The notes beneath the pieces were generated by a model, which did not search any database, was not told where the DNA came from, and worked only from the letters and a program-made list of their open reading frames with translations. From Centipeda flueggei ATCC 43531 (GTDB taxonomy: Bacteria > Bacillota > Negativicutes > Selenomonadales > Selenomonadaceae), in NCBI RefSeq assembly GCF_000160695.1, contig NZ_GG694010.1:1-59233 (forward strand): a DNA stretch of 59,233 bases, read 5' to 3'. Position 1 is the stretch's first letter. The number at the start of each line of letters is the position of its first letter. This document shows, piece after piece, positions 9,735 through 24,827 of this stretch. The translations under genes and the position numbers were made by a program.

Positions 9735-10859
<1,125 letters not shown>

Positions 10860-10925
10860 TCATCCACCTCCACGCCTGCCAAATTCTCTCTATTGGCGCA
10901 AACTCTTCCCACTCACAACACTACT

Positions 10926-10954
10926 ATATTATGTATCACGCCCGACATTGTCAA
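10926..10954 (-). promoter_or_regulatory. Strong promoter for the tgt-yajC-secDF operon
   Basis: On the minus strand a perfect TTGACA (10949-10954) and TAATAT (10926-10931) are 17 bases apart, about 65 bases before the tgt start. The 240-base gap between tgt and trkA also holds the trkA promoter region; I see no gene in it. Confidence 0.75.
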
Positions 10955-11036
10955 GCCGATTCGCGACAATTCAATGAGCAAATCTCCAAATTTTACCGAC
11001 CATAGCATTTATCATAGCGCCGAAATCGGTCAAAGT

Positions 11037-11066
11037 ATGGCATCATGCCATGCGGTGTGGTATACT
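11037..11066 (+). promoter_or_regulatory. trkA promoter region with palindrome
   Basis: TATACT at 11061-11066 is a likely -10, 33 bases before the trkA start, without a good -35. A 15-base palindrome ATGGCATCATGCCAT (11037-11051) covers the place of the -35 and could be an operator for an activator or repressor. Confidence 0.4.
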
Positions 11067-11099
11067 TACCATGATTTATCGTGTGCAGGAGGTAGGAAT

Positions 11100-12449
11100 G
11101 TGCGAATTGTAGTAGCAGGCGCGGGACAGCTCGGATACAGTATTGCCTCGCTGCTCTCGGAGGAGGGCATCGACGTCGTCGTGGTGGACGGCGTGTCAAA
11201 GCAGCTGGAGGCGGCGAAGACGACGCTCGATGTGCTCACGGTCGAGGCAAACATCGCGAGCCCCATAACGATGAACGATCCCGACATCAACAGTGCGGAC
11301 ATTCTCATCGCGGTGACGGAGAGCGATGAGGTGAACATCGTCGCCTGTGTCCTCGCGAAGAAACACGGCATTCGTCATACGATTGCCCGTATCCGCGATA
11401 TGAAGGTCACGGTGGAGGCAGGCAAGTATCTCAAGGAAAATTTTGACATTGATCTCGTGCTGAATCCCGAGCTCATCACGGCGAACGAAATCAACCGCAT
11501 CCTCATGACCCCTGCCGCACTCAATGTGGAGGATTTTGCACAGGGCAAAGTGCAGCTCTTCGAGACGCGCATCCGCCGCCATGCACCGATCGCCCGCATT
11601 CCGCTCAAGGACTTAACCCTGCCGCAAGGTGTCTTGGCAGGGCTGATCTTTCGTGACCATCGAATGATTATCCCCCATGGCGATGATATGTTTCTCCCGG
11701 GCGACAATGCCTACTTCATCGGTCTGCAGGAACGGATCGAGGAGTTCAGCCAGAGCCTCGTGCCCAGCGACACGAAGAAGCTCGCACGTGTCGCCATCAT
11801 CGGCGCGGGGCGGACGGGACGCGCACTCGCGCTCATGCTCGAGCGCCAAGGGGTACAGGTAAAGGTGATCGACCGCAGCCGTGAGCGCTGTGAGCTGCTC
11901 GCGGGGATGATGTCGACAGGGCTTGCGATCTGCGGCGACGGTACGGATATGGATCTCCTGATACAGGAGGGGATCGCCGAGGCGGATGCCATCGTCTGTC
12001 TGACGGAGGACGATAAGCTGAATCTGATGCTTGCCCTCCTCGCACGCCATCTCTCAAACAGCAGCATCAAGTCATTGGTGCGCGTCAACCGCAACGAGTA
12101 TATTGATCTCATGGAGAAGGTCGGCGTAACCATCGCGCTCTCGGCGCGTCTGCTCTCCGCAAGCGAGGTGCTCGCCTTTGCGCGAGGCGGCGATGTGGCG
12201 CGTGTCACCCTGCTCGAGGGCGCACGTGCAGAGGCGCTCGAGGTGATCGTCCGCCCCGGTGCTCCCGTCGCAGGAAAAAAACTGATGGACGCACGGCTCC
12301 CGCGCGAATGTCTCGTCTGCGCCTATGTGCGCGGAGAAAAAGCGGCGATCCCGAACGGCATGACAGAGCTGCAGCCGGGCGACCGTGTCATTCTCTTCGT
12401 TCTGAAGAGTTTTGCCAATAAGGCTCTCACCTACTTTGGAGACGACTGA
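11100..12449 (+). CDS. trkA: Trk potassium uptake regulatory subunit TrkA
   Basis: Cytoplasmic NAD(H)/ATP-binding gating ring of the Trk potassium transporter. The 449 residues contain two repeats, each an RCK-N Rossmann domain (GAGQLGYSIA at ~8, GAGRTGRALAL at ~235) followed by an RCK-C domain. This is the double-RCK form. I start at GTG 11100 (VRIVVAGAG) behind AGGAGG. An in-frame extension reaching upstream would add 106 residues unlike the family and covers the promoter. The stop overlaps the first trkH start (TGATG), indicating coupling. Confidence 0.93.
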   Translation: MRIVVAGAGQLGYSIASLLSEEGIDVVVVDGVSKQLEAAKTTLDVLTVEANIASPITMNDPDINSADILIAVTESDEVNIVACVLAKKHGIRHTIARIRDMKVTVEAGKYLKENFDIDLVLNPELITANEINRILMTPAALNVEDFAQGKVQLFETRIRRHAPIARIPLKDLTLPQGVLAGLIFRDHRMIIPHGDDMFLPGDNAYFIGLQERIEEFSQSLVPSDTKKLARVAIIGAGRTGRALALMLERQGVQVKVIDRSRERCELLAGMMSTGLAICGDGTDMDLLIQEGIAEADAIVCLTEDDKLNLMLALLARHLSNSSIKSLVRVNRNEYIDLMEKVGVTIALSARLLSASEVLAFARGGDVARVTLLEGARAEALEVIVRPGAPVAGKKLMDARLPRECLVCAYVRGEKAAIPNGMTELQPGDRVILFVLKSFANKALTYFGDD

Positions 12450-13888
12450 TGCGCTTTGATCTCTTTTGGGTGCTCATGGGGCGCACGGCGTATGTCTTCG
12501 CTCCGCTCTATCTCATTCCCTTTGCCTATGGGATAATCGTCGGAGATGCCTCGACCGGATTTTTTCCCGTTCTCAGTGTACTGACCTTTATCCTCGGCAT
12601 GGTGTTCGGCAATATGGGGCGCAGCCACATGCGCCAGTTATCTGTGCAGGAAGGGACGCTCTTTCTGCTCGTCGTGTGGTTTTTCCTCGCGCTACTCGGC
12701 ATGCTGCCCTTTCATCTGGCGGGGCTACATCTCTCGCCGATCAATACCTTCTTTGAATCTATCTCAGCGCTTACGACGACGGGGCTGACGGCTCTGCCCG
12801 AGGATCTGCCGCCCGCACTCCTCCTCTGGCGCGGACTCATGAGCTGGTTCGGCGGACTGCTCTTTGTCGTCATTCTTGTGACGGTGCAGCCCGTCGTCGG
12901 CGGCTGCTTCGGCGTGGATTTTTCGGTGCGGCAGGAGCGACTCTTCAGCCCTCTCTGGAACCGTATGACGCGCCCCATGCACGAGATGACGCTGCTCTAT
13001 ATCGCCATCACAATTGCTGCGGCTCTCCTCTATCTCGCGGGGGGCGACACGGTCTTCTCTGCACTGCTGCTCGCCCTCTATACGATTGCCTCGGGGGCTG
13101 GGCCGATGGTGGGCGACCTCCCGCCGACACCATCCTTGATGCTCGCGGGCGGTCTCAGCGCACTGCTCTCAGCACTTCCGCTCCTCACGATCCGACAGCT
13201 CCTGCGCCGACGCGGTGAGGTGGACGTGCTGCGCCACACGGAGCTGCACGCCTTTTGCCTGCTCTTTCTCGCCGCTGGATTGGCGCTCACCATGCCGCCC
13301 CTGCTGCGCGGTACATCCTCCCCCATCGATGCCATTGCCCACGGATTTTTCTACGCCATTTCCTTTCTCTCCACGAATGGGCTGCTGCTCGCGGGAGCGA
13401 TCCCCGTCCACGGCGGTGCCGTGCTGCTCCTGACGCTCCTCGCCATCATCGGCGGCTGCATGGGCTCGGCAGCAGGCGGTTTCCGCATTTCGCGCCTGCT
13501 CGTACTGCTCTCGCTTTCATGGACGGAACTACGGCGCACCCTTCACCCGCGCATTGTATTCGCCGTGCGGCAGGGGGGAATGCCGATCCCCATCCACTCG
13601 GTCGGACGGGTGCTCGTCCTCTCTTTTTTCTTCGCCGCAGTCTTTTCGGTCAGCAGCCTCCTCATCTCTCTGGCGAACCTTGCCCCCATCGAGACGATTG
13701 CCCTGACGGTCTCCTGTCTCACAACGACGGGCGGTGTCGCGGGGCTGGTACACATGGACACAGCAGCGGCACTTCCGGCATGGACAAAGATCATCTGTGC
13801 CTTTCTCATGATCCTTGGGCGCATCGAGATTTTTGCCTTTTTCCTTTTCATCGGTGCGCTGTTCAAGGACACCGGGCATAACTGGTAG
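12449..13888 (+). CDS. trkH: TrkH-family potassium channel subunit, divergent paralogue 1
   Basis: Membrane subunit of a Trk/Ktr-type K+ (or Na+) uptake system. The 479 residues are strongly hydrophobic with the four membrane-pore-membrane repeats of the family. The filter loops read SISALTTTGLTAL (~107), TIASGAGPMVGDL (~211), SFLSTNGLLLAG (~308) and TVSCLTTTGGVAG (~426). The second loop lacks the usual T-x-G-x-x-G-F form, so ion selectivity may be altered. Coupled to trkA by a one-base overlap and followed six bases later by a second trkH. Confidence 0.88.
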   Translation: MRFDLFWVLMGRTAYVFAPLYLIPFAYGIIVGDASTGFFPVLSVLTFILGMVFGNMGRSHMRQLSVQEGTLFLLVVWFFLALLGMLPFHLAGLHLSPINTFFESISALTTTGLTALPEDLPPALLLWRGLMSWFGGLLFVVILVTVQPVVGGCFGVDFSVRQERLFSPLWNRMTRPMHEMTLLYIAITIAAALLYLAGGDTVFSALLLALYTIASGAGPMVGDLPPTPSLMLAGGLSALLSALPLLTIRQLLRRRGEVDVLRHTELHAFCLLFLAAGLALTMPPLLRGTSSPIDAIAHGFFYAISFLSTNGLLLAGAIPVHGGAVLLLTLLAIIGGCMGSAAGGFRISRLLVLLSLSWTELRRTLHPRIVFAVRQGGMPIPIHSVGRVLVLSFFFAAVFSVSSLLISLANLAPIETIALTVSCLTTTGGVAGLVHMDTAAALPAWTKIICAFLMILGRIEIFAFFLFIGALFKDTGHNW

Positions 13889-13894
13889 GACACT

Positions 13895-15343
13895 ATGAAT
13901 ATCTATGCGGTCAACTATATCCTGTCACGCCTTTCTTTTGCGATGGCGGCGGCACTCGCGATCCCCCTCGTCCTCGCCATCGTCGGCAAGGAGGCAAGCC
14001 GCGAGGCGTTCATGCTGTCCGTCTTCGTCAGCATCTTTTTCGGCATCGCCTTTCGCCGTTACGGGGAACGCTCCGATGATCTGACCCCGCGCGAGGGGAT
14101 CGCCATTACAGCGTTCGGCTGGTTCACGGGGACTTTTCTCGGGATGCTTCCCTACCTCCTCGGCCACTACCTCGGTTTTCTCGACGCACTCTTTGAGAGT
14201 ATCTCGGGCTTTACCGGTACGGGCGCGACGGTCTTTGGCACACTCGATGGAGTGCCGTACAGCATCCTCTTCTGGCGGATGATGACGGCGTGGATCGGCG
14301 GCCTCGGCATCATCGTGATCTTTATCGCGCTGCTCCCGCAGTCCGGGGCAAGCACGATCTATATGTACAGTGCCGAGGGCAGCGGTCCGACGCTCGACCG
14401 TGTCATGCCGCGCCTGCATGAGATGACCGTCGCGCTCTTTAAGATCTATCTGATCTTCACCGTCATAACAACGGCTATTTTTATGGTGTGCGGTGTCGAT
14501 TTCAGTATTGCTCTTGCCCATGCAATGTCCACCATCGGAACCTGTGGATTCTCCACCTACGACGACAGCACGATGCACTTTCACAATCTCCCATTCGAGC
14601 TGTGGACGGCCCTCTTCATGTTCCTCGCAGGCGGCAGCTTCTCACTCTACTACCGTGCCTATGTCAAGGGACCTGCGGTCATTCTGCACAACACGGAGTT
14701 TCGCACCTATCTCGGCATCGTTCTTGCGGCGACGCTCCTCATCGCGCTCAACCTCATCCTCTCGATGGGGATGGACGGCAGTATGGCGGCACGCGTCGCA
14801 ATCTTTCAGGTGACCTCGCTGTCGACGACGGGATTCGTGTCGGCGGACTTTGAAACGTGGCCGACCTTCTCCAAGATGGTACTGCTCCTCCTCATGGTGA
14901 TCGGCGGCTGCGCAGGCTCGACAGCAAGCGGCATCAAGGTGGCACGCCTCATCCTCCTCGTGCGCAACGCACGTGCCGTCGTCCTCCAAAAGCTGAATCC
15001 GAACCGCGTGGTGGATATCACGCTCACGGGCGCACATGTCGACGGCGCAATGCTGCTGCGCGTCGGGACATTTTTCTTTCTCTACCTCGCCGTCATCTTT
15101 GTCACGGCGTTCCTGCTCGCCATGGACGGTCTTCTCCCGTTCGATGCTGTCGCCGTCGCCATCACGACCATCGGCAACATCGGCCCCGCATTTGGGATCG
15201 TGAGCGCGACCTCCACCTACGCACCGCTCTCCGACTTCTCAAAGGCGATACTCTGCCTCACGATGCTCCTCGGCCGCCTTGAGATCTTCACCCTGCTCAT
15301 TCTCCTGCAGCCGTCGTTCTGGCGCAGGACGCATCGGTGGTAA
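13895..15343 (+). CDS. trkH: TrkH-family potassium channel subunit, paralogue 2
   Basis: Second TrkH-type subunit of the operon (482 residues). The filter loops are closer to the family norm: SISGFTGTGATVF (~109), STIGTCGFSTYDD (~212), TSLSTTGFVSAD (~310) and TTIGNIGPAFGIV (~425), with a conserved GGCAGSTASGIK segment. Identity to the preceding paralogue is limited to the fold and scattered motifs, so the pair is not a recent duplication. One TrkA may serve both, or they may form a mixed assembly. The operon ends at the terminator just downstream. Confidence 0.9.
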   Translation: MNIYAVNYILSRLSFAMAAALAIPLVLAIVGKEASREAFMLSVFVSIFFGIAFRRYGERSDDLTPREGIAITAFGWFTGTFLGMLPYLLGHYLGFLDALFESISGFTGTGATVFGTLDGVPYSILFWRMMTAWIGGLGIIVIFIALLPQSGASTIYMYSAEGSGPTLDRVMPRLHEMTVALFKIYLIFTVITTAIFMVCGVDFSIALAHAMSTIGTCGFSTYDDSTMHFHNLPFELWTALFMFLAGGSFSLYYRAYVKGPAVILHNTEFRTYLGIVLAATLLIALNLILSMGMDGSMAARVAIFQVTSLSTTGFVSADFETWPTFSKMVLLLLMVIGGCAGSTASGIKVARLILLVRNARAVVLQKLNPNRVVDITLTGAHVDGAMLLRVGTFFFLYLAVIFVTAFLLAMDGLLPFDAVAVAITTIGNIGPAFGIVSATSTYAPLSDFSKAILCLTMLLGRLEIFTLLILLQPSFWRRTHRW

Positions 15344-20141: not shown

Positions 20142-20177
20142 AAAACACCCGCGGGGAGAATCTCCGCGAGTGTTTTT
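20142..20177 (-). terminator. comFB terminator
   Basis: A GC-rich interrupted hairpin (AACACTCGCGGAGA paired with TCTCCCCGCGGGTGTT, small mismatches) lies 25 bases after the comFB stop, followed on the minus strand by TTTTCTTG. Confidence 0.7.
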
Positions 20178-20202: not shown

Positions 20203-20496
20203 TCAGATGCCCTCCTCATTCCGTTCATGATGCGGCTGTCCATTGACAATCTGCATCGCACGCAGCGTCTCAGCGAGTATCTCCACCTCACATTGAGGCT
20301 CCATTCCCTCAACACGCTTCAGAACATTGCCCTTATGTGTTGATACATAGCACGGCGGCAGATTATTCAGTGCAATCATCATCATATCCGTACGACAGCG
20401 GTCACACATGCAGACGTCCGGATACTGCGCTGCGAGCCGCGTCAGCATATCCCCGACAACATCCTCCATATAGTTCTTAAATGGCAGGTGGTTCAT
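20203..20496 (-). CDS. comFB: ComFB-family late competence protein
   Basis: Small cytoplasmic protein of the ComFB family, whose members are linked to competence operons and, in cyanobacteria, to second-messenger binding. The 97 residues show the family core NYMEDVVGDML and a cysteine cluster DVCMCDRCRTDMMMIALNNLPPCYV (possible zinc site). I start at ATG 20496 with GGGGAGGG upstream. The gene begins 23 bases after the Hsp70-like gene and is almost certainly co-transcribed with it. No comF helicase or comFC is adjacent, so a competence role is not supported by context. Confidence 0.85.
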   Translation of the reverse strand: MNHLPFKNYMEDVVGDMLTRLAAQYPDVCMCDRCRTDMMMIALNNLPPCYVSTHKGNVLKRVEGMEPQCEVEILAETLRAMQIVNGQPHHERNEEGI

Positions 20497-20519
20497 CGCA
20501 TCGCCCTCCCCGAAGGCCA

Positions 20520-23183
20520 TCATCCAAGACGAACAGTATAGATCGTTCCCTTGTAATTCTTTGCAGCGAGTGTATGCTCCGAGGCTACCGTATATTCAAT
20601 GGTATTCGGCGACTTCTTGCGAATGTATACACCGACCTCATCACCATCATTCACATCATCGTCGTCAATCATGCAGCGCACCATGCGTACCTCCGCAGCC
20701 TTCATATGCCCTTTAAGTGCACGCGGTTCCTGCGTATAGTAGAGCTCAAATTCGTCTTCATCCGCATAGGTAAAATACGTCCATGTGCCGTAGTCGACGC
20801 GTGCATCGATATCCACATGGAAACAGCCATGTTCGTTCAGGCTGCCGAGGAAATAGGGGAACAGCAGTTCATCGTGCTCATCGACGTTCTTATTGATAAT
20901 CTTGACGTCCTTCCCGCCCTTCCGGCAGCGAAGGAGTCCGAACGCCACGCCCGTTTTTCCCGTGCGAAGACGATCAAAACCATCCAGCATTCTTTTGCCG
21001 CTGTCTTTCTCTTCGTCTTCCATTCCGAGCGGAAGATAGAGAAGGAATGGCGCATCTTTGCTCTGTGCCGATGTACTCTTGGACACGTCCTGCTTCTTCC
21101 CATCCTGTTTCTCATGCGATGCAGGCTTTGACATCTGCTGCAGGGAACTGATCTGACGGGCAATGTACTCATCGAACAGCTTGCGCACCATCGGTGCCTT
21201 GCAGGAATTTCCGGCGAGGAAAATGTGCACCTGACGCACATCACGCCCCTTAAATGCCGCAGCCATCGCCTGGAAGAAGTTATCTACGCCGCGGCGAATG
21301 CGGTTCTCTAGTGTCCGCTCCAGTTTCTTTACATCAATATGCAGACGGACGTCTGCACGATTGCCCGCATTGCCTGTCTTCTCCGAGGAAAAGAGTGTGA
21401 GCTCCGTATCGAACGCATCTCCTGCTGCAAACTCCTCATAGCCCGCTCCGCGCTCCCAGAAGGGACGCAGCCGTTCTGCCAGAATCTTGTTGTTGAGATG
21501 TGATGCCGCATCTCTGGTCTCGCGCACGAGTGCCTCCGCCCCTGCAAAGGTTTCGCTCTCCGGAGGAAGTGCAAACGTGATCTTGTGCTGACGCATCTCG
21601 GGCAAATTGTCCTTGAACACCTCATAGGCGAGCAGTTCGAGGATATTCTCACCGCCGAGATACATATCACTGCCAAAGCCAAACTGCTCAATAATGAATT
21701 TACGCCGTCCGTTCTCCGGCACAGACTCCACACCAAAGTCAAAATCCGTCGTGCCGCCGCCAAAGTCGAATACACCGTAGGCGACCTCCTCACCCACGCG
21801 CTTTGGCTCGAGCCCATACGCCTCAAGGGCACTGATCGCGTATGCAGCAGGTTCATTTGCCCCGTCGTACACGCGGAAACGGCGCATCATCTCCGGATCA
21901 TCGAGAAGAGCCTTCGGCAATGTCTTTCTGAGACCGCGCTCAAAACTCAAGCGAATGTGCTCGCGCACACTTTTTTCGTACCCAACGGGAAAGGAGAGAA
22001 TGTAATCGAGATAGATATTGCGGTGCATATTGTTGATATAAAGACCAAGATAGTACGCGTAAATCTCGATGGGATCGAAGCCGCCTGCATCGAGCGGCTG
22101 TGTCTCCGCGTAGGGTTTGACCTCTTGGATATAGCCGTGCCGATCCTTCAGAATCGGCGAATTCGCCGTATCGCGCGTCCAGCGTTTCAGCTCGCTGAAC
22201 ACAGAGTAATAAACAGCAATCCCCTCCGTTGACTGACGCTCAAAGATCGCATCCGCAGCCTGATGGGATGCTGTCACCTGCGACCACTCCGTATAGGGGC
22301 GTCCCTCACGGGCGCGATAAAGCTGTTTGAACTTTTCGATATCGATCAGCTCGATCGCCGTTGGATTCTCGTAATCCTGAATCGTCGGCGCATTGGAGTA
22401 GTCGCCTTTGCCAATACGCAGGAGGCGCGCCTCGCGGTCACGGCAGACGACGACCGTACTGCGCGTACCGAAGTCGATCGCACAGGTTCCGTTCATGATA
22501 ACATCCATCTGCGGCGGACGTGCTACGAGGAAATCCGTCGGCGGCAGGCGCAGACATACACTATCCTCACGTCCCTCGTCCGTCAATTCCTCATAGAGAT
22601 CCCAATGTCCAAGGCTCATATCTGTCAGTATGCGCTCCGCGTAAGGCTGGATATTTGCACGGACATAGTCAGTATAGAGAAGGGATTTCTTAAATGGTTC
22701 AATGGGAAAATCAAGCGCCACCGACCCCGTATTGATTGCCGTCTCAATAACACTCTGAATATCGAAGGTAATTCCAAAGATCGTCTCCTTGAAACGCCCT
22801 GCCACAACATCTTCAGCAAACCGTTCATGATCAAAGATGAGCTGGTCTTCCTCAATGCGGATATAGGCACGGATCTTCGGATATTCCGCCACTAAACGGC
22901 GCAGACGCTCTTCCTGCTCATGCGAGACGTCCTCCGCGTTAAACTCGTCTGAAATCCATTTCAGGAAACTGTGTGCGCCGCTCGTTTCCATCCCAAGCGA
23001 AAACATGTACTTCTTGTTGACAATCGACGCTGTCTCATCTTTGAGTTCAGCGATATCATTGCCAATCTGTCTGCCAAAACGAAGCGAACTCTCATAAAAG
23101 AACTGTCGGAAGGTGTCCTTTTTTAAATGTAAACTGCGCATGAGCACCGGACGCACCGTCACCTGCACCTCTTTTCGCGCCAT
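20520..23183 (-). CDS. Hsp70-like actin-fold ATPase with a private N-terminal domain
   Basis: An 887-residue protein. The nucleotide-binding motifs of the Hsp70/actin fold are clear: phosphate-1 CAIDFGTRST (234-243), phosphate-2 FDFGGGTTDF (472-481), and adenosine motif IFLAGNSCKAP (654-664). Residues 1-230 precede the ATPase and match no domain I recognise. After the adenosine motif comes a low-complexity K/Q/S linker (686-711) and a ~175-residue C-terminal region ending in beta-rich sequence, not a canonical Hsp70 substrate-binding domain with lid. No signal peptide. AGGAG precedes the ATG. The downstream partner is comFB. It is probably an ATP-driven scaffold or chaperone-like machine; its client is unknown. 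Confidence 0.8.
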   Translation of the reverse strand: MARKEVQVTVRPVLMRSLHLKKDTFRQFFYESSLRFGRQIGNDIAELKDETASIVNKKYMFSLGMETSGAHSFLKWISDEFNAEDVSHEQEERLRRLVAEYPKIRAYIRIEEDQLIFDHERFAEDVVAGRFKETIFGITFDIQSVIETAINTGSVALDFPIEPFKKSLLYTDYVRANIQPYAERILTDMSLGHWDLYEELTDEGREDSVCLRLPPTDFLVARPPQMDVIMNGTCAIDFGTRSTVVVCRDREARLLRIGKGDYSNAPTIQDYENPTAIELIDIEKFKQLYRAREGRPYTEWSQVTASHQAADAIFERQSTEGIAVYYSVFSELKRWTRDTANSPILKDRHGYIQEVKPYAETQPLDAGGFDPIEIYAYYLGLYINNMHRNIYLDYILSFPVGYEKSVREHIRLSFERGLRKTLPKALLDDPEMMRRFRVYDGANEPAAYAISALEAYGLEPKRVGEEVAYGVFDFGGGTTDFDFGVESVPENGRRKFIIEQFGFGSDMYLGGENILELLAYEVFKDNLPEMRQHKITFALPPESETFAGAEALVRETRDAASHLNNKILAERLRPFWERGAGYEEFAAGDAFDTELTLFSSEKTGNAGNRADVRLHIDVKKLERTLENRIRRGVDNFFQAMAAAFKGRDVRQVHIFLAGNSCKAPMVRKLFDEYIARQISSLQQMSKPASHEKQDGKKQDVSKSTSAQSKDAPFLLYLPLGMEDEEKDSGKRMLDGFDRLRTGKTGVAFGLLRCRKGGKDVKIINKNVDEHDELLFPYFLGSLNEHGCFHVDIDARVDYGTWTYFTYADEDEFELYYTQEPRALKGHMKAAEVRMVRCMIDDDDVNDGDEVGVYIRKKSPNTIEYTVASEHTLAAKNYKGTIYTVRLG

Positions 23184-23268: not shown

Positions 23269-23295
23269 AAAAAAGCCCCGCACATCCTGCAGGGC
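23269..23295 (-). terminator. tRNA-Arg terminator
   Basis: On the minus strand GCCCTGCA-ggat-GTGCGGGGC (one G-T pair) is followed by TTTTTTC, 14 bases after the tRNA CCA end. It separates the tRNA from the Hsp70-like gene. Confidence 0.85.
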
Positions 23296-23308: not shown

Positions 23309-23383
23309 TGGTGCGCTCGGCGGGAGTCGAACCCACGCTTTCAGCTCCGGAGGCTAACGTCCTATCCACTGGACTACGAGCGC
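23309..23383 (-). tRNA. tRNA-Arg (anticodon CCG)
   Basis: Reads CGG codons. The cloverleaf is complete: acceptor GCGCTCG/CGAGCGC, D-stem GTCC/GGAC, anticodon stem TTAGC/GCTGA with loop CTCCGGA (CCG at 34-36), T-arm GTGGG-TTCGACT-CCCGC, discriminator A, and an encoded CCA (23309-23311). It is a single tRNA with its own promoter and terminator. Confidence 0.95.
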
Positions 23384-23397
23384 ACAATACATAGCGC

Positions 23398-23426
23398 ATT
23401 ATAGCGCAAAAGGATCTATTTGTCGA
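23398..23426 (-). promoter_or_regulatory. tRNA-Arg promoter
   Basis: TCGACA (23421-23426) and a perfect TATAAT (23398-23403) are 17 bases apart on the minus strand, 14 bases before the tRNA 5' end. The -35 sits inside the last codons of the upstream membrane-protein gene. Confidence 0.8.
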
Positions 23427-24117
23427 TATTTTTTTCGCCGGCCTCGGCATTATCGTCCGTATCATCGGCATGGTGTGCCGACGAAATCGGTGCAAAGTAG
23501 TCGCGAACCGCTGAAATGTCATCCTCTACAAAGAGCGCCACAGGAGACTCGCGCAGCATAACAAGTTCCAAGAGGCGTCCCTGCGCAGCAGGATTCTTCT
23601 CCTTCATTCCGGTAGGATCAGCAGCTGCACGGGTCAGTGTTATTGCCTTTTGCTGCGCCGCGGCATAGTCGTCCGTTCTGCTGAGAATAACAGCCAGATG
23701 GTCATAGACGCCATCGGAAAGTTCGATCGGCGGTGCATTTTGCTCAATACGGCCGCGCAGATTCTGCATTTCTTTCTCGAGTGCTGAAAGACGCTCATAG
23801 GTTACCGAAAGGCGGGTATTCCCTTCCTTGGCATCGGCTATAATCTGATGATAGCGCGTCCAATTACGGTCAAGTTCCGCAATTTGCTTCTGATATGTCC
23901 CCCACCATGGCATGAAGTAATCCTGATCGCGTGCAATCGCTGTACGCTGCTCCTGAGTCAAGGGAGGAGGTGCATGATCGGCGCTCTGCATCTGAACAAT
24001 GATGCCGCCGGCTGCCGCAAGAAGCACCACAAAAACAAAGAAAATGCGATGCGGCAGATAACGAAACAACAGAATAAGTAAAAGAAGGACGAGAACAATA
24101 AGGGCATAAATCAACAT
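23416..24117 (-). CDS. Hypothetical membrane-anchored coiled-coil protein
   Basis: I do not recognise this 233-residue protein. It starts with two hydrophobic helices (~2-19 and ~24-41) separated by RYLPHR. Then comes a charged soluble part with a predicted coiled coil (~75-125, RLSALEKEMQNLRGRIEQN) and an acidic C-terminus (HHADDTDDNAEAGE). The soluble part would face the cytoplasm if the hairpin inserts normally. The start overlaps the stop of the Crp/Fnr gene by one base, so the two are translationally coupled and may act together. The tRNA promoter overlaps its stop codon. Confidence 0.65.
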   Translation of the reverse strand: MLIYALIVLVLLLLILLFRYLPHRIFFVFVVLLAAAGGIIVQMQSADHAPPPLTQEQRTAIARDQDYFMPWWGTYQKQIAELDRNWTRYHQIIADAKEGNTRLSVTYERLSALEKEMQNLRGRIEQNAPPIELSDGVYDHLAVILSRTDDYAAAQQKAITLTRAAADPTGMKEKNPAAQGRLLELVMLRESPVALFVEDDISAVRDYFAPISSAHHADDTDDNAEAGEKNIDK

Positions 24118-24827
24118 TATTTACGATCTCCCACACCTTCATCTGCACGACGACGAAGGGCAGCACGGTCCATAATATGAATGCAGCCGCGTGAAGCGCG
24201 TACCATTCCTTCTTGTGAAAACTCGCCAATGAGACGGCTGACGACCTCGCGTGCCGTGCCTAGTGCCTGCGCCGTTTGCTCATGGGTCAGACGAATCTCA
24301 CTGCCCGCTGTGCGTTCTGATTCCGCAAGAAGAAACTTCGCCAGGCGTTGGTCGGCGGGTGTAAAGAGCATTTGCTGAAAGCGCCATAACATCTCTGAGA
24401 GACGGTGGACGGCACTTTCATACGCCAACAGACGTACATGAATATTTGCATCAATAATTCTATGACAGATTCCCGTCTCTGAGCAGAACAGTTCTGTATT
24501 TTCTGCCGCCTCGATCGCAGCTTCACAGGAGACACTGCCAAGGAATGCGGCGCTCGAAAGGAGGGCGACCTCGCCGGCACGCATGAAGCAGAGGTTCACC
24601 TCACGCCCCTCATCGGTGACGACATAGACGCGCAGCGTGCCGGATACAATGTGCAGCGTACCAAGATGTCCAAGTGCACCGCGATGGAGTGTCTCCCCCT
24701 TTGCACAGAACCGATAATATGTGTGTGCTGTCAGAAGGACGCGCTGTTCCTCTGTCAGAGGCCTCCACAGATCAAATCGGTCAATATAATCCCGAAAATG
24801 ATATTCTTTCCGTTCTCTGGCCGGCAT
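24117..24827 (-). CDS. Crp/Fnr-family transcription regulator
   Basis: Predicted cyclic-nucleotide-fold sensor with a winged helix. The 236 residues have an N-terminal cNMP-type barrel (LGTLHIVSGTLRVYVVTDEGREV, ~53-75), a dimerisation helix (~125-150) and an HTH (EIRLTHEQTAQALGTAREVVSRLIGEFSQEG, ~175-205). It has cysteines near 80-120, but not the N-terminal four-cysteine cluster of FNR, so oxygen sensing by Fe-S is not evident. A run of nine G forms its ribosome-binding region (24831-24839). Targets are unknown; the coupled downstream membrane gene is one candidate. Confidence 0.85.
   Translation of the reverse strand: MPARERKEYHFRDYIDRFDLWRPLTEEQRVLLTAHTYYRFCAKGETLHRGALGHLGTLHIVSGTLRVYVVTDEGREVNLCFMRAGEVALLSSAAFLGSVSCEAAIEAAENTELFCSETGICHRIIDANIHVRLLAYESAVHRLSEMLWRFQQMLFTPADQRLAKFLLAESERTAGSEIRLTHEQTAQALGTAREVVSRLIGEFSQEGMVRASRGCIHIMDRAALRRRADEGVGDRK

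What the first reader, a model, noticed from the sequence alone, without database searches (positions are those of the whole stretch)
20203..23183. Hsp70-like ATPase with an unrecognised N-terminal domain, paired with ComFB
The nucleotide motifs are intact but begin only at residue 234. The first 230 residues and the last ~175 match nothing I know, and a K/Q/S linker splits the protein. It is 23 bases from comFB, a family with cysteine-rich fold and emerging second-messenger links. The pair may be a sensor plus ATP-driven machine.
Basis: partly seen in the sequence, partly recalled or inferred. Interest (0 to 1): 0.55.

Follow-up and report, generated by a model that had tools for sequence, protein, structure and literature searches.

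The report
Orphan Hsp70-like ATPase beside comFB
In mouth bacteria of the genus Selenomonas, an ATP-driven chaperone-like protein whose relatives mostly belong to accessory conflict or toxin-delivery gene clusters has become a fixed gene directly beside comFB, a gene whose product senses cyclic-dinucleotide signals in other bacteria.

Summary
In detail: an 887-aa Hsp70-like ATPase (20520-23183, minus) lies 23 nt upstream of comFB. Three corrections follow. (1) It belongs to a divergent Hsp70-like family that no Pfam model covers. Outside two orphan groups, relatives are mostly 930-1100 aa and sit in accessory operons: coiled-coil gene plus HerA-like pump, injection/toxin cluster, or Zorya-like genes. 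The window protein is an orphan: partner genes absent, N-terminus short. A second genus made orphans independently (one common clade rejected, p 2e-95). (2) The 'K/Q/S linker' is a fast-evolving insert inside the ATPase fold, so only the last ~130 residues lie outside it; putative catalytic residues are invariant in 23 rows. (3) The comFB pair is kept in 14 of 14 genomes of the genus and seen nowhere outside it. In the same sample of 100 relatives, 22 of 27 comFB-bearing genomes outside the window's family have comFB directly before pilM, another actin-fold ATPase gene. Best reading: a domesticated, ATP-cycling Hsp70-type machine, made with and probably controlled by ComFB as cyclic-dinucleotide sensor. 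Coupling to ComFB is inferred, not shown. Structure prediction failed: the permitted alignment was too shallow.

The parts
20520..23183 (-). Hsp70-like ATPase gene, 887 aa
   Evidence: present in 14 of 14 genus genomes, the 13 others at 86-94% identity
22977..23183 (-). residues 1-69: lineage-specific N-terminal segment, standing where longer relatives have ~150 more residues
   Evidence: alignments A1, A4; with 712-760 the least conserved part outside the insert (84% mean identity)
22491..22976 (-). residues 70-231: family N-terminal region ending in the RANxxPY...D...GHWxL block
   Evidence: 91% mean identity in the genus
20919..22490 (-). residues 232-755: actin/Hsp70-type ATPase fold (interrupted by the insert)
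   Evidence: DnaK profile match; D237, K333, E444, D473, T478 invariant in 23 rows
22455..22484 (-). phosphate-1 motif CAIDFGTRST (234-243)
21741..21767 (-). phosphate-2 motif DFGGGTTDF (473-481)
21192..21218 (-). adenosine-motif-like LAGNSCKAP (656-664)
   Evidence: motif name recalled
21051..21158 (-). residues 676-711: K/Q/S insert inside the ATPase fold, almost unconstrained
   Evidence: 36% mean identity, dN 0.70 against 0.04 in the ATPase
20931..20963 (-). TGKTGVAFGLL (741-751), last motif of the ATPase fold
   Evidence: T741, G742, K743, T744, G745, V746, G749 and L750 invariant in A6; role recalled
20523..20918 (-). residues 756-887: family-specific C-terminal region, beta-rich in low-confidence models
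   Evidence: conserved over 23 rows; no PDB match; models pLDDT 36.5 and 40.9
20497..20519 (-). 23-nt gap with the comFB Shine-Dalgarno-like GGGGAGGG; an in-frame upstream ATG at 20523 overlaps the Hsp70-like stop
20203..20496 (-). comFB, 97 aa, with CxCxxC
   Evidence: PF10719 E 3e-21; B. subtilis-type ComFB structure 4wai E 3e-5
20150..20168 (.). terminator-like hairpin after comFB
   Evidence: one search lists it on the plus strand (8 sites found in the region, 5.2 expected by chance); the minus-strand reading downstream of comFB is mine
23309..23383 (-). tRNA-Arg(CCG) just upstream
   Evidence: kept in the 6 other genus loci scanned
23275..23295 (-). terminator-like hairpin between the tRNA and the Hsp70-like gene
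   Evidence: weak evidence (8 sites found against 5.2 expected)

Best explanation
The gene encodes a stand-alone ('orphan') member of an unnamed Hsp70-like ATPase family. Most relatives are parts of accessory, conflict-type operons: a coiled-coil partner plus a HerA-like pump, an injection/toxin cluster, or Zorya-like genes. In the Selenomonas/Centipeda genus one copy, which groups with HerA-associated ones, was domesticated. It stands without partner genes, with a shorter N-terminus, at a core locus as the first gene of an Hsp70-like/comFB pair (shown by comparison). It most likely still runs an ATP-driven open/closed cycle that binds and remodels a client protein (inferred from invariant active-site residues). 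ComFB, probably made from the same message, most likely acts as the cyclic-dinucleotide-sensing regulator or adaptor of that cycle (inferred from conserved linkage, the known ligands of ComFB and CdgR, and the comFB-pilM linkage elsewhere in the class). The client is unknown; a pilus/DNA-uptake or cell-envelope assembly is the likeliest.
For: Family and catalytic residues. Operon contexts. Orphan status: own genome has no second family member, only a hit at E 0.03 in a DnaK-sized frame, and 12 of 14 genus genomes have no match to the HerA-like partner. Placement outside the injection-type clade, among HerA-associated copies; independent of the other genus's orphans, p 2e-95. Purifying selection: pN 0.04 against pS 0.60 in the ATPase; third most conserved of 12 local genes compared. 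Pair kept 14 of 14, same strand, gap 23-29 nt (13, one), including the genome that matches S. massiliensis, where cysE no longer follows comFB. c-di-AMP cyclase domain 14 of 14. ComFB as c-di-AMP/c-di-GMP receptor: PMC12313861 (parts 1-2 of 3 read).
Against: The pairing is confined to one genus, so it is one evolutionary event and could be positional. Of 69 comFB-bearing genomes, 54 have no match to the Hsp70-like protein and one more has it unlinked: 55 of 69 are unpaired. 0 of 40 fetched loci with family members outside the genus hold a comFB, and the orphan copies of genus g12 lie in scattered loci, so the ATPase does not need ComFB in general. The careful tree leaves the genus clade's sister unresolved. 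No interaction, ATPase or ligand-binding data exist, no usable structure model was obtained, and co-transcription was not shown.
Confidence: 0.45

Rival explanations
1. The orphan is an independent specialised chaperone. Its adjacency to comFB is mere co-expression or chance placement beside a tRNA gene, and ComFB does its own job elsewhere in the cell.
For: Pair limited to one genus; no comFB in 40 fetched loci with relatives; comFB in 28 of 47 other genomes of the family without the pair; the gene stands directly after a tRNA-Arg.
Against: Pair kept in 14 of 14 genomes, and in one (L069, G007) the gene order changes just after comFB while the pair stays; no tRNA-end duplication found in the window (one match, the tRNA itself).
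Confidence: 0.33
2. Domesticated defence part: the orphan still acts against phages or plasmids, as its operon relatives are suspected to do.
For: Relatives sit with WYL regulators, HerA-like ATPases, ZorA/ZorB-like proteins, HEPN and dynamin genes.
Against: None of the partner genes lies beside it; strict presence in 14 of 14 genomes and slow evolution are unusual for a defence gene; no PADLOC model matches the protein at E 0.01.
Confidence: 0.12
3. Stand-in for PilM: in the window's family (Selenomonadaceae), which keeps PilT but shows no full-length PilM match, the Hsp70-like protein took the place beside ComFB that PilM holds in other Negativicutes and serves the same pilus or DNA-uptake machine.
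For: comFB directly before pilM in 22 of 27 comFB-bearing genomes outside the family; only partial PilM matches in the family; PilT over the cut-off in 81 of 100 genomes, ComEC in 14 of 14 of the genus; in Synechocystis, comFB mutants have less PilN and less pilM transcript (PMC12313861).
Against: The protein shares only the fold with PilM, and no PilN-like partner was sought; other genera of the family also lack a full PilM match and the Hsp70-like pair yet keep comFB and PilT.
Confidence: 0.1

Closest known systems
Hsp70/DnaK superfamily (PF00012)
   Same: ATPase fold, phosphate-1, phosphate-2, adenosine-like and last motifs; putative catalytic residues kept
   Different: Below the Pfam gathering score; family N-terminal extension, insert inside the ATPase, unmatched C-terminal region; no J-domain or GrpE family recognised among the neighbours scanned
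CnuD/CnuCD Hsp70-like proteins of type III CoCoNuT systems (PMC11090510, passages seen)
   Same: Divergent Hsp70-like protein in a conflict-system setting with coiled coils
   Different: CnuD belongs to McrBC-type systems and is described with Walker A-like motifs that are degenerate and ATP hydrolysis of extremely low efficiency at best; here the motifs are intact and no McrB/McrC turned up among the neighbours scanned
GTPase-centric conflict systems with HSP70 and GrpE (PMC7159879, passages seen)
   Same: Hsp70 recruited into operons thought to act in biological conflict
   Different: No such GTPase among the Negativicutes neighbours scanned (one dynamin-family gene on the Acinetobacter plasmid); coiled-coil gene and HerA-like pump or injection genes instead
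ComFB / CdgR cyclic-dinucleotide receptors (PMC12313861, parts 1-2 of 3; PMC13075795, passages)
   Same: ComFB fold family (PF10719), CxCxxC as in chain 4wai
   Different: Neighbour is an Hsp70-like gene instead of comFA/comFC (Bacillus), hfq (cyanobacteria; both from PMC12313861) or pilM (other Negativicutes, this work); ligand untested here
PilM of type IV pili (PF11104)
   Same: Actin-fold ATPase (recalled) whose gene follows comFB in most comFB-bearing Negativicutes sampled outside the family
   Different: Different family, much smaller protein; gene order reversed (comFB then pilM; Hsp70-like then comFB)

Membership tests
Hsp70 (PF00012) | score over Pfam's gathering cut-off | tested here: not met
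   13 bits against 20.6; 3 of 23 rows match at all at E up to 1, best E 0.0046
Hsp70 (PF00012) | ATPase motifs and catalytic residues | tested here: met
   D237, K333, E444, D473, T478 invariant in 23 rows; DnaK profile match E 4e-5. Equivalence of these with DnaK's residues, K333 above all, is recalled and inferred
Hsp70 (PF00012) | C-terminal substrate-binding domain | tested here: inconclusive
   no PDB sequence match at E up to 10; models pLDDT 36.5 and 40.9
DnaK / HscA equivalogs | score over NCBIfam cut-offs | tested here: not met
   15.7 against 648 (DnaK) and 18.1 against 708.55 (HscA)
ComFB (PF10719) | score over Pfam's gathering cut-off | tested here: met
   75.7 against 25 bits
ComFB equivalog NF052654 | score over NCBIfam cut-off | tested here: not met
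   36.6 against 120 bits
ComFB as cyclic-dinucleotide receptor | binds c-di-AMP or c-di-GMP | not testable with these tools
   known for cyanobacterial homologues (PMC12313861); c-di-AMP cyclase domain present in 14 of 14 genus genomes
CnuD of CoCoNuT systems | degenerate ATPase motifs | tested here: not met
   motifs intact
CnuD of CoCoNuT systems | McrB/McrC-type genes alongside | tested here: inconclusive
   none among neighbours put through Pfam, but only part of the neighbours was scanned
PADLOC anti-phage defence proteins | match to any PADLOC model | tested here: not met
   0 families for the window protein at E 0.01

The most novel reading that the evidence does not exclude
ComFB is a general cyclic-dinucleotide switch for actin/Hsp70-fold ATPases. 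In most comFB-bearing Negativicutes it sits on PilM and gates type IV pilus assembly. In oral Selenomonas, which show no canonical PilM, it was re-wired onto a domesticated conflict-system Hsp70-like ATPase. An accessory chaperone thereby became a housekeeping machine under second-messenger control.
Probability: 0.2. Interest if true: 0.8.

Novelty: new variant of a known kind. Interest (0 to 1): 0.5.

Why it matters
How ComFB passes its signal on is largely open; in what I read, the one named partner is DevH, for the cyanobacterial homologue CdgR (PMC13075795, passages), and I saw none for Firmicutes. The comFB-pilM linkage in Negativicutes, together with the comFB/Hsp70-like pair in Selenomonas, names concrete partners to test. 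Separately, an Hsp70-like family without a Pfam model, recurring in HerA-, injection- and Zorya-like settings and orphaned at least twice, suggests that several conflict systems share a dedicated chaperone module.

Tried and rejected
Both models are unusable, so no fold search was run. Four viral-contig scans for relatives to deepen the alignment found none.

Lcl_C (PF07603) as the ancestral N-terminal domain: the two Acinetobacter relatives match it (E 2e-6 and 1e-6, both below the cut-off). The link to the Negativicutes N-termini is weak: E 0.002 in a two-sequence search, hhalign probability 0.5%, and Lcl_C is not among the chance-level Pfam matches of 15 members. Left as a hint only.

Integration-scar idea (tRNA end duplicated beyond comFB): not found. 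Gene memC5 (23416-24117; my label) as partner: it is widespread, in 42 of 60 genomes searched, and the tRNA and a terminator-like site stand between; in 11 memC5 loci of other genera neither comFB nor the Hsp70-like gene was nearby. Literature: brought no paper that I could see on this family or on a comFB/Hsp70-like pair in the held open-access library, judged from listings except for passages of PMC11090510 and PMC7159879; subscription journals are mostly not held. The six Zorya/Hsp70 hits look off-topic from the listing.
Full report
What is there. The minus strand holds an 887-aa ORF at 20520-23183 and comFB at 20203-20496, 23 nt downstream. An earlier in-frame ATG of comFB at 20523 overlaps the stop of the first gene, but only the later start has a Shine-Dalgarno-like sequence. 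Upstream are a tRNA-Arg at 23309-23383 and a terminator-like hairpin at 23275-23295; another hairpin follows comFB (a consensus scan in which 8 were found against 5.2 expected, so weak). Beyond lie genes whose order is kept in five of six other genus loci scanned. Their housekeeping names (cysE, cysS, thyX, glmU, prs, ispE, priA and so on) are mine, from reading the sequences; no family search was run on them.

The protein. Pfam gives PF00012 at 13 bits, below its cut-off; NCBIfam gives DnaK and HscA far below theirs. A profile of 23 rows reaches DnaK chains in the PDB set at E 4e-5; the three aligned stretches are collinear, but the best of them alone has only E 0.012. D237, K333, E444, D473 and T478 are invariant in those 23 rows; their match to the Hsp70 active site rests on the motifs plus recall. 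The conserved TGKTGVAFGLL at 741-751 indicates that the ATPase fold runs to about residue 755. The K/Q/S stretch at 676-711 is therefore an insert in the fold. Over ten genus sequences it has dN 0.70, against 0.04 for the ATPase and 0.05-0.11 for the other parts; dS is 1.1-1.6 with up to 9 of 45 pairs saturated, so ratios are only indicative. Residues 70-231 align with the N-terminal part of longer relatives and end in a block kept across the family. The first ~69 residues are lineage-specific, where longer relatives have about 150 further residues.

Who has it. In 100 related genomes, 19 have a match to the protein: 14 of 14 of the genus and 5 of 86 outside. The nine named genomes are Selenomonas and Centipeda. 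A profile search of 252 class genomes gave 46 with a match, of which 39 are below E 1e-100; the other seven are weak or partial matches, several in DnaK-sized frames. In 398 phylum genomes 9 matched, 6 below 1e-100, of which one (G311) is outside the class. Among plasmids 2 of 72,556 records matched, from Acinetobacter piscicola and a Helicobacter sp.; among phage records 0 of 50,697. The own genome has no second family member, only a hit at E 0.03 in a 627-aa frame, the size of DnaK.

What relatives sit with. In 48 family rows from fetched loci, genus copies included (single-linkage clusters and neighbours up to 9 kb away, so groupings are rough): 16 lie by a HerA-like ATPase gene, usually with a coiled-coil gene upstream and a Gly/Ala-rich gene after it; 7 lie in clusters with DUF4280/toxin, Hcp-like and VgrG-like genes and mostly an immunity gene; 5 were labelled Zorya-like, of which L066, L117 and L118 have ZorA- or ZorB-like genes, L116 only the AAA and coiled-coil genes, and L127 only distant neighbours while grouping with the injection-type copies in the tree; 7 are the genus copies beside comFB (the script labelled 4; in the other 3 an opposite-strand ORF hid comFB, which searches show); 9 are solo; 4 have only the coiled-coil gene. 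The Acinetobacter plasmid has WYL, HerA-like, coiled-coil, two family copies, HEPN and dynamin genes and an integrase; the Helicobacter plasmid has a WHH nuclease, an SMI1/KNR4 gene and an FtsK gene. Such company suggests conflict or toxin-delivery islands; that function is inferred.

Two domestications. In the careful tree of 44 rows and 425 ATPase columns (four fragmentary or divergent rows dropped beforehand), the solo copies of genus g12 nest in the injection-type clade (support 95/100), while the window's genus forms its own clade outside it, among rows that are mostly HerA-associated, with its exact sister unresolved. A quicker tree joined it (SH-aLRT 100) with five g12 copies, three beside a HerA-like gene and two with only the coiled-coil gene; the careful tree does not confirm that fork. 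One clade of all orphans (7 genus and 8 solo rows) is rejected (log-likelihood loss 241, p 2e-95; the groups were named after a first tree had been seen). Of the 14 genus genomes, 12 have no match to the HerA-like partner. The orphan is the third most conserved of 12 local genes compared (mean identity 88.8% over six genomes, after ThyX and GntR, each 90%), so it is under strong selection in the genus.

The comFB side. comFB is in 69 of 100 relatives: 14 of 14 in the genus, 28 of 47 in the rest of the family, 27 of 39 outside the family. The pair is adjacent, on one strand, in 14 of 14 genus genomes (coordinates), with gaps of 23-29 nt (13, the fourteenth, L135, 24 nt). In G007, whose contig matches S. 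massiliensis in length and match position, cysE no longer follows comFB, yet the pair is intact. Outside the genus no pair was seen: of the five such genomes, four have no comFB and one has it on another contig, and a comFB search of 40 fetched loci with family members outside the genus, 688,556 bases, found none, while 6 of 6 genus loci rang. In 21 other comFB loci of the family none of the other window genes searched (16 in all) lay near. Outside the family, 22 of 27 comFB-bearing genomes have comFB 70-163 nt before a PilM match on the same strand; in G087 that match is below the family's cut-off, and a few others are partial. Two more (G078, G079) have both on one contig, 12 and 8 kb apart; the other three (G061, G070, G096) are not adjacent in the tables. 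In L215 the order is pilin-like genes, comFB, pilM, pilN-like, pilO-like (names by position and recall). In the window's family PilM matches are partial and lie mostly in frames of 640-985 aa, the rest in ~350-aa frames at E over 1e-4; I take these for FtsA-like and MreB-like proteins. PilT is widespread (97 of 100 with a match, 81 over the cut-off). ComEC and a c-di-AMP cyclase domain are in 14 of 14 genus genomes. The comFB tree is too weakly resolved to say whether the genus copy was inherited or acquired.

Literature. PMC12313861 (parts 1 and 2 of 3 read) reports ComFB as a c-di-AMP receptor that also binds c-di-GMP, with PilN and pilM transcript lowered in the mutant. PMC13075795 (passages) reports the homologue CdgR acting partly through DevH, a CRP-family factor. 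A CRP/FNR-like gene lies at 24117-24827, two protein genes upstream of the Hsp70-like gene; this may be coincidence. PMC11090510 and PMC7159879 (passages) describe other Hsp70-like proteins in conflict systems.

Verdict. Shown: a conserved orphan Hsp70-like ATPase with intact motifs, whose relatives mostly sit in accessory operons, fixed beside comFB in one genus. Inferred: ATP-driven client remodelling, control by ComFB, and a pilus or envelope client.

Noticed in passing
L214-L221 and the coordinates: In 22 of 27 comFB-bearing Negativicutes genomes outside the window's family (of 39 such genomes searched), comFB sits directly before pilM in the type IV pilus operon; this may be the more general clue to ComFB function.
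   Followed up: partly
L066:1243-14523 (genome G007), L117, L118: Zorya-like clusters: ZorA-like and/or ZorB-like genes, a divergent family Hsp70-like gene, a coiled-coil gene, and in L066 a radical SAM gene and an AAA ATPase; a possible Hsp70-bearing Zorya relative.
   Followed up: partly
L064, L065, L104, L105, L110: Small injection-type clusters with Hsp70-like, DUF4280/toxin-like, immunity-like, Hcp-like and VgrG-like genes (families tested by Pfam in L064; the others by similarity) and, in L105 and L110, a second ~530-aa Hsp70-like gene.
   Followed up: partly
window 10782-15343 (+): A TrkA-like and two TrkH-like potassium-uptake genes (named by eye) about 5 kb from comFB; potassium channels are classic c-di-AMP targets (recalled).
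   Followed up: no
window 24117-24827 (-): CRP/FNR-family regulator two protein genes upstream of the pair; the comFB homologue CdgR works partly through the CRP-family factor DevH in Anabaena (PMC13075795).
   Followed up: no
L115, L119-L125, L129: Nine solo Hsp70-like copies in genus g12, mostly in different housekeeping-looking settings, as if the single gene moved on its own.
   Followed up: partly
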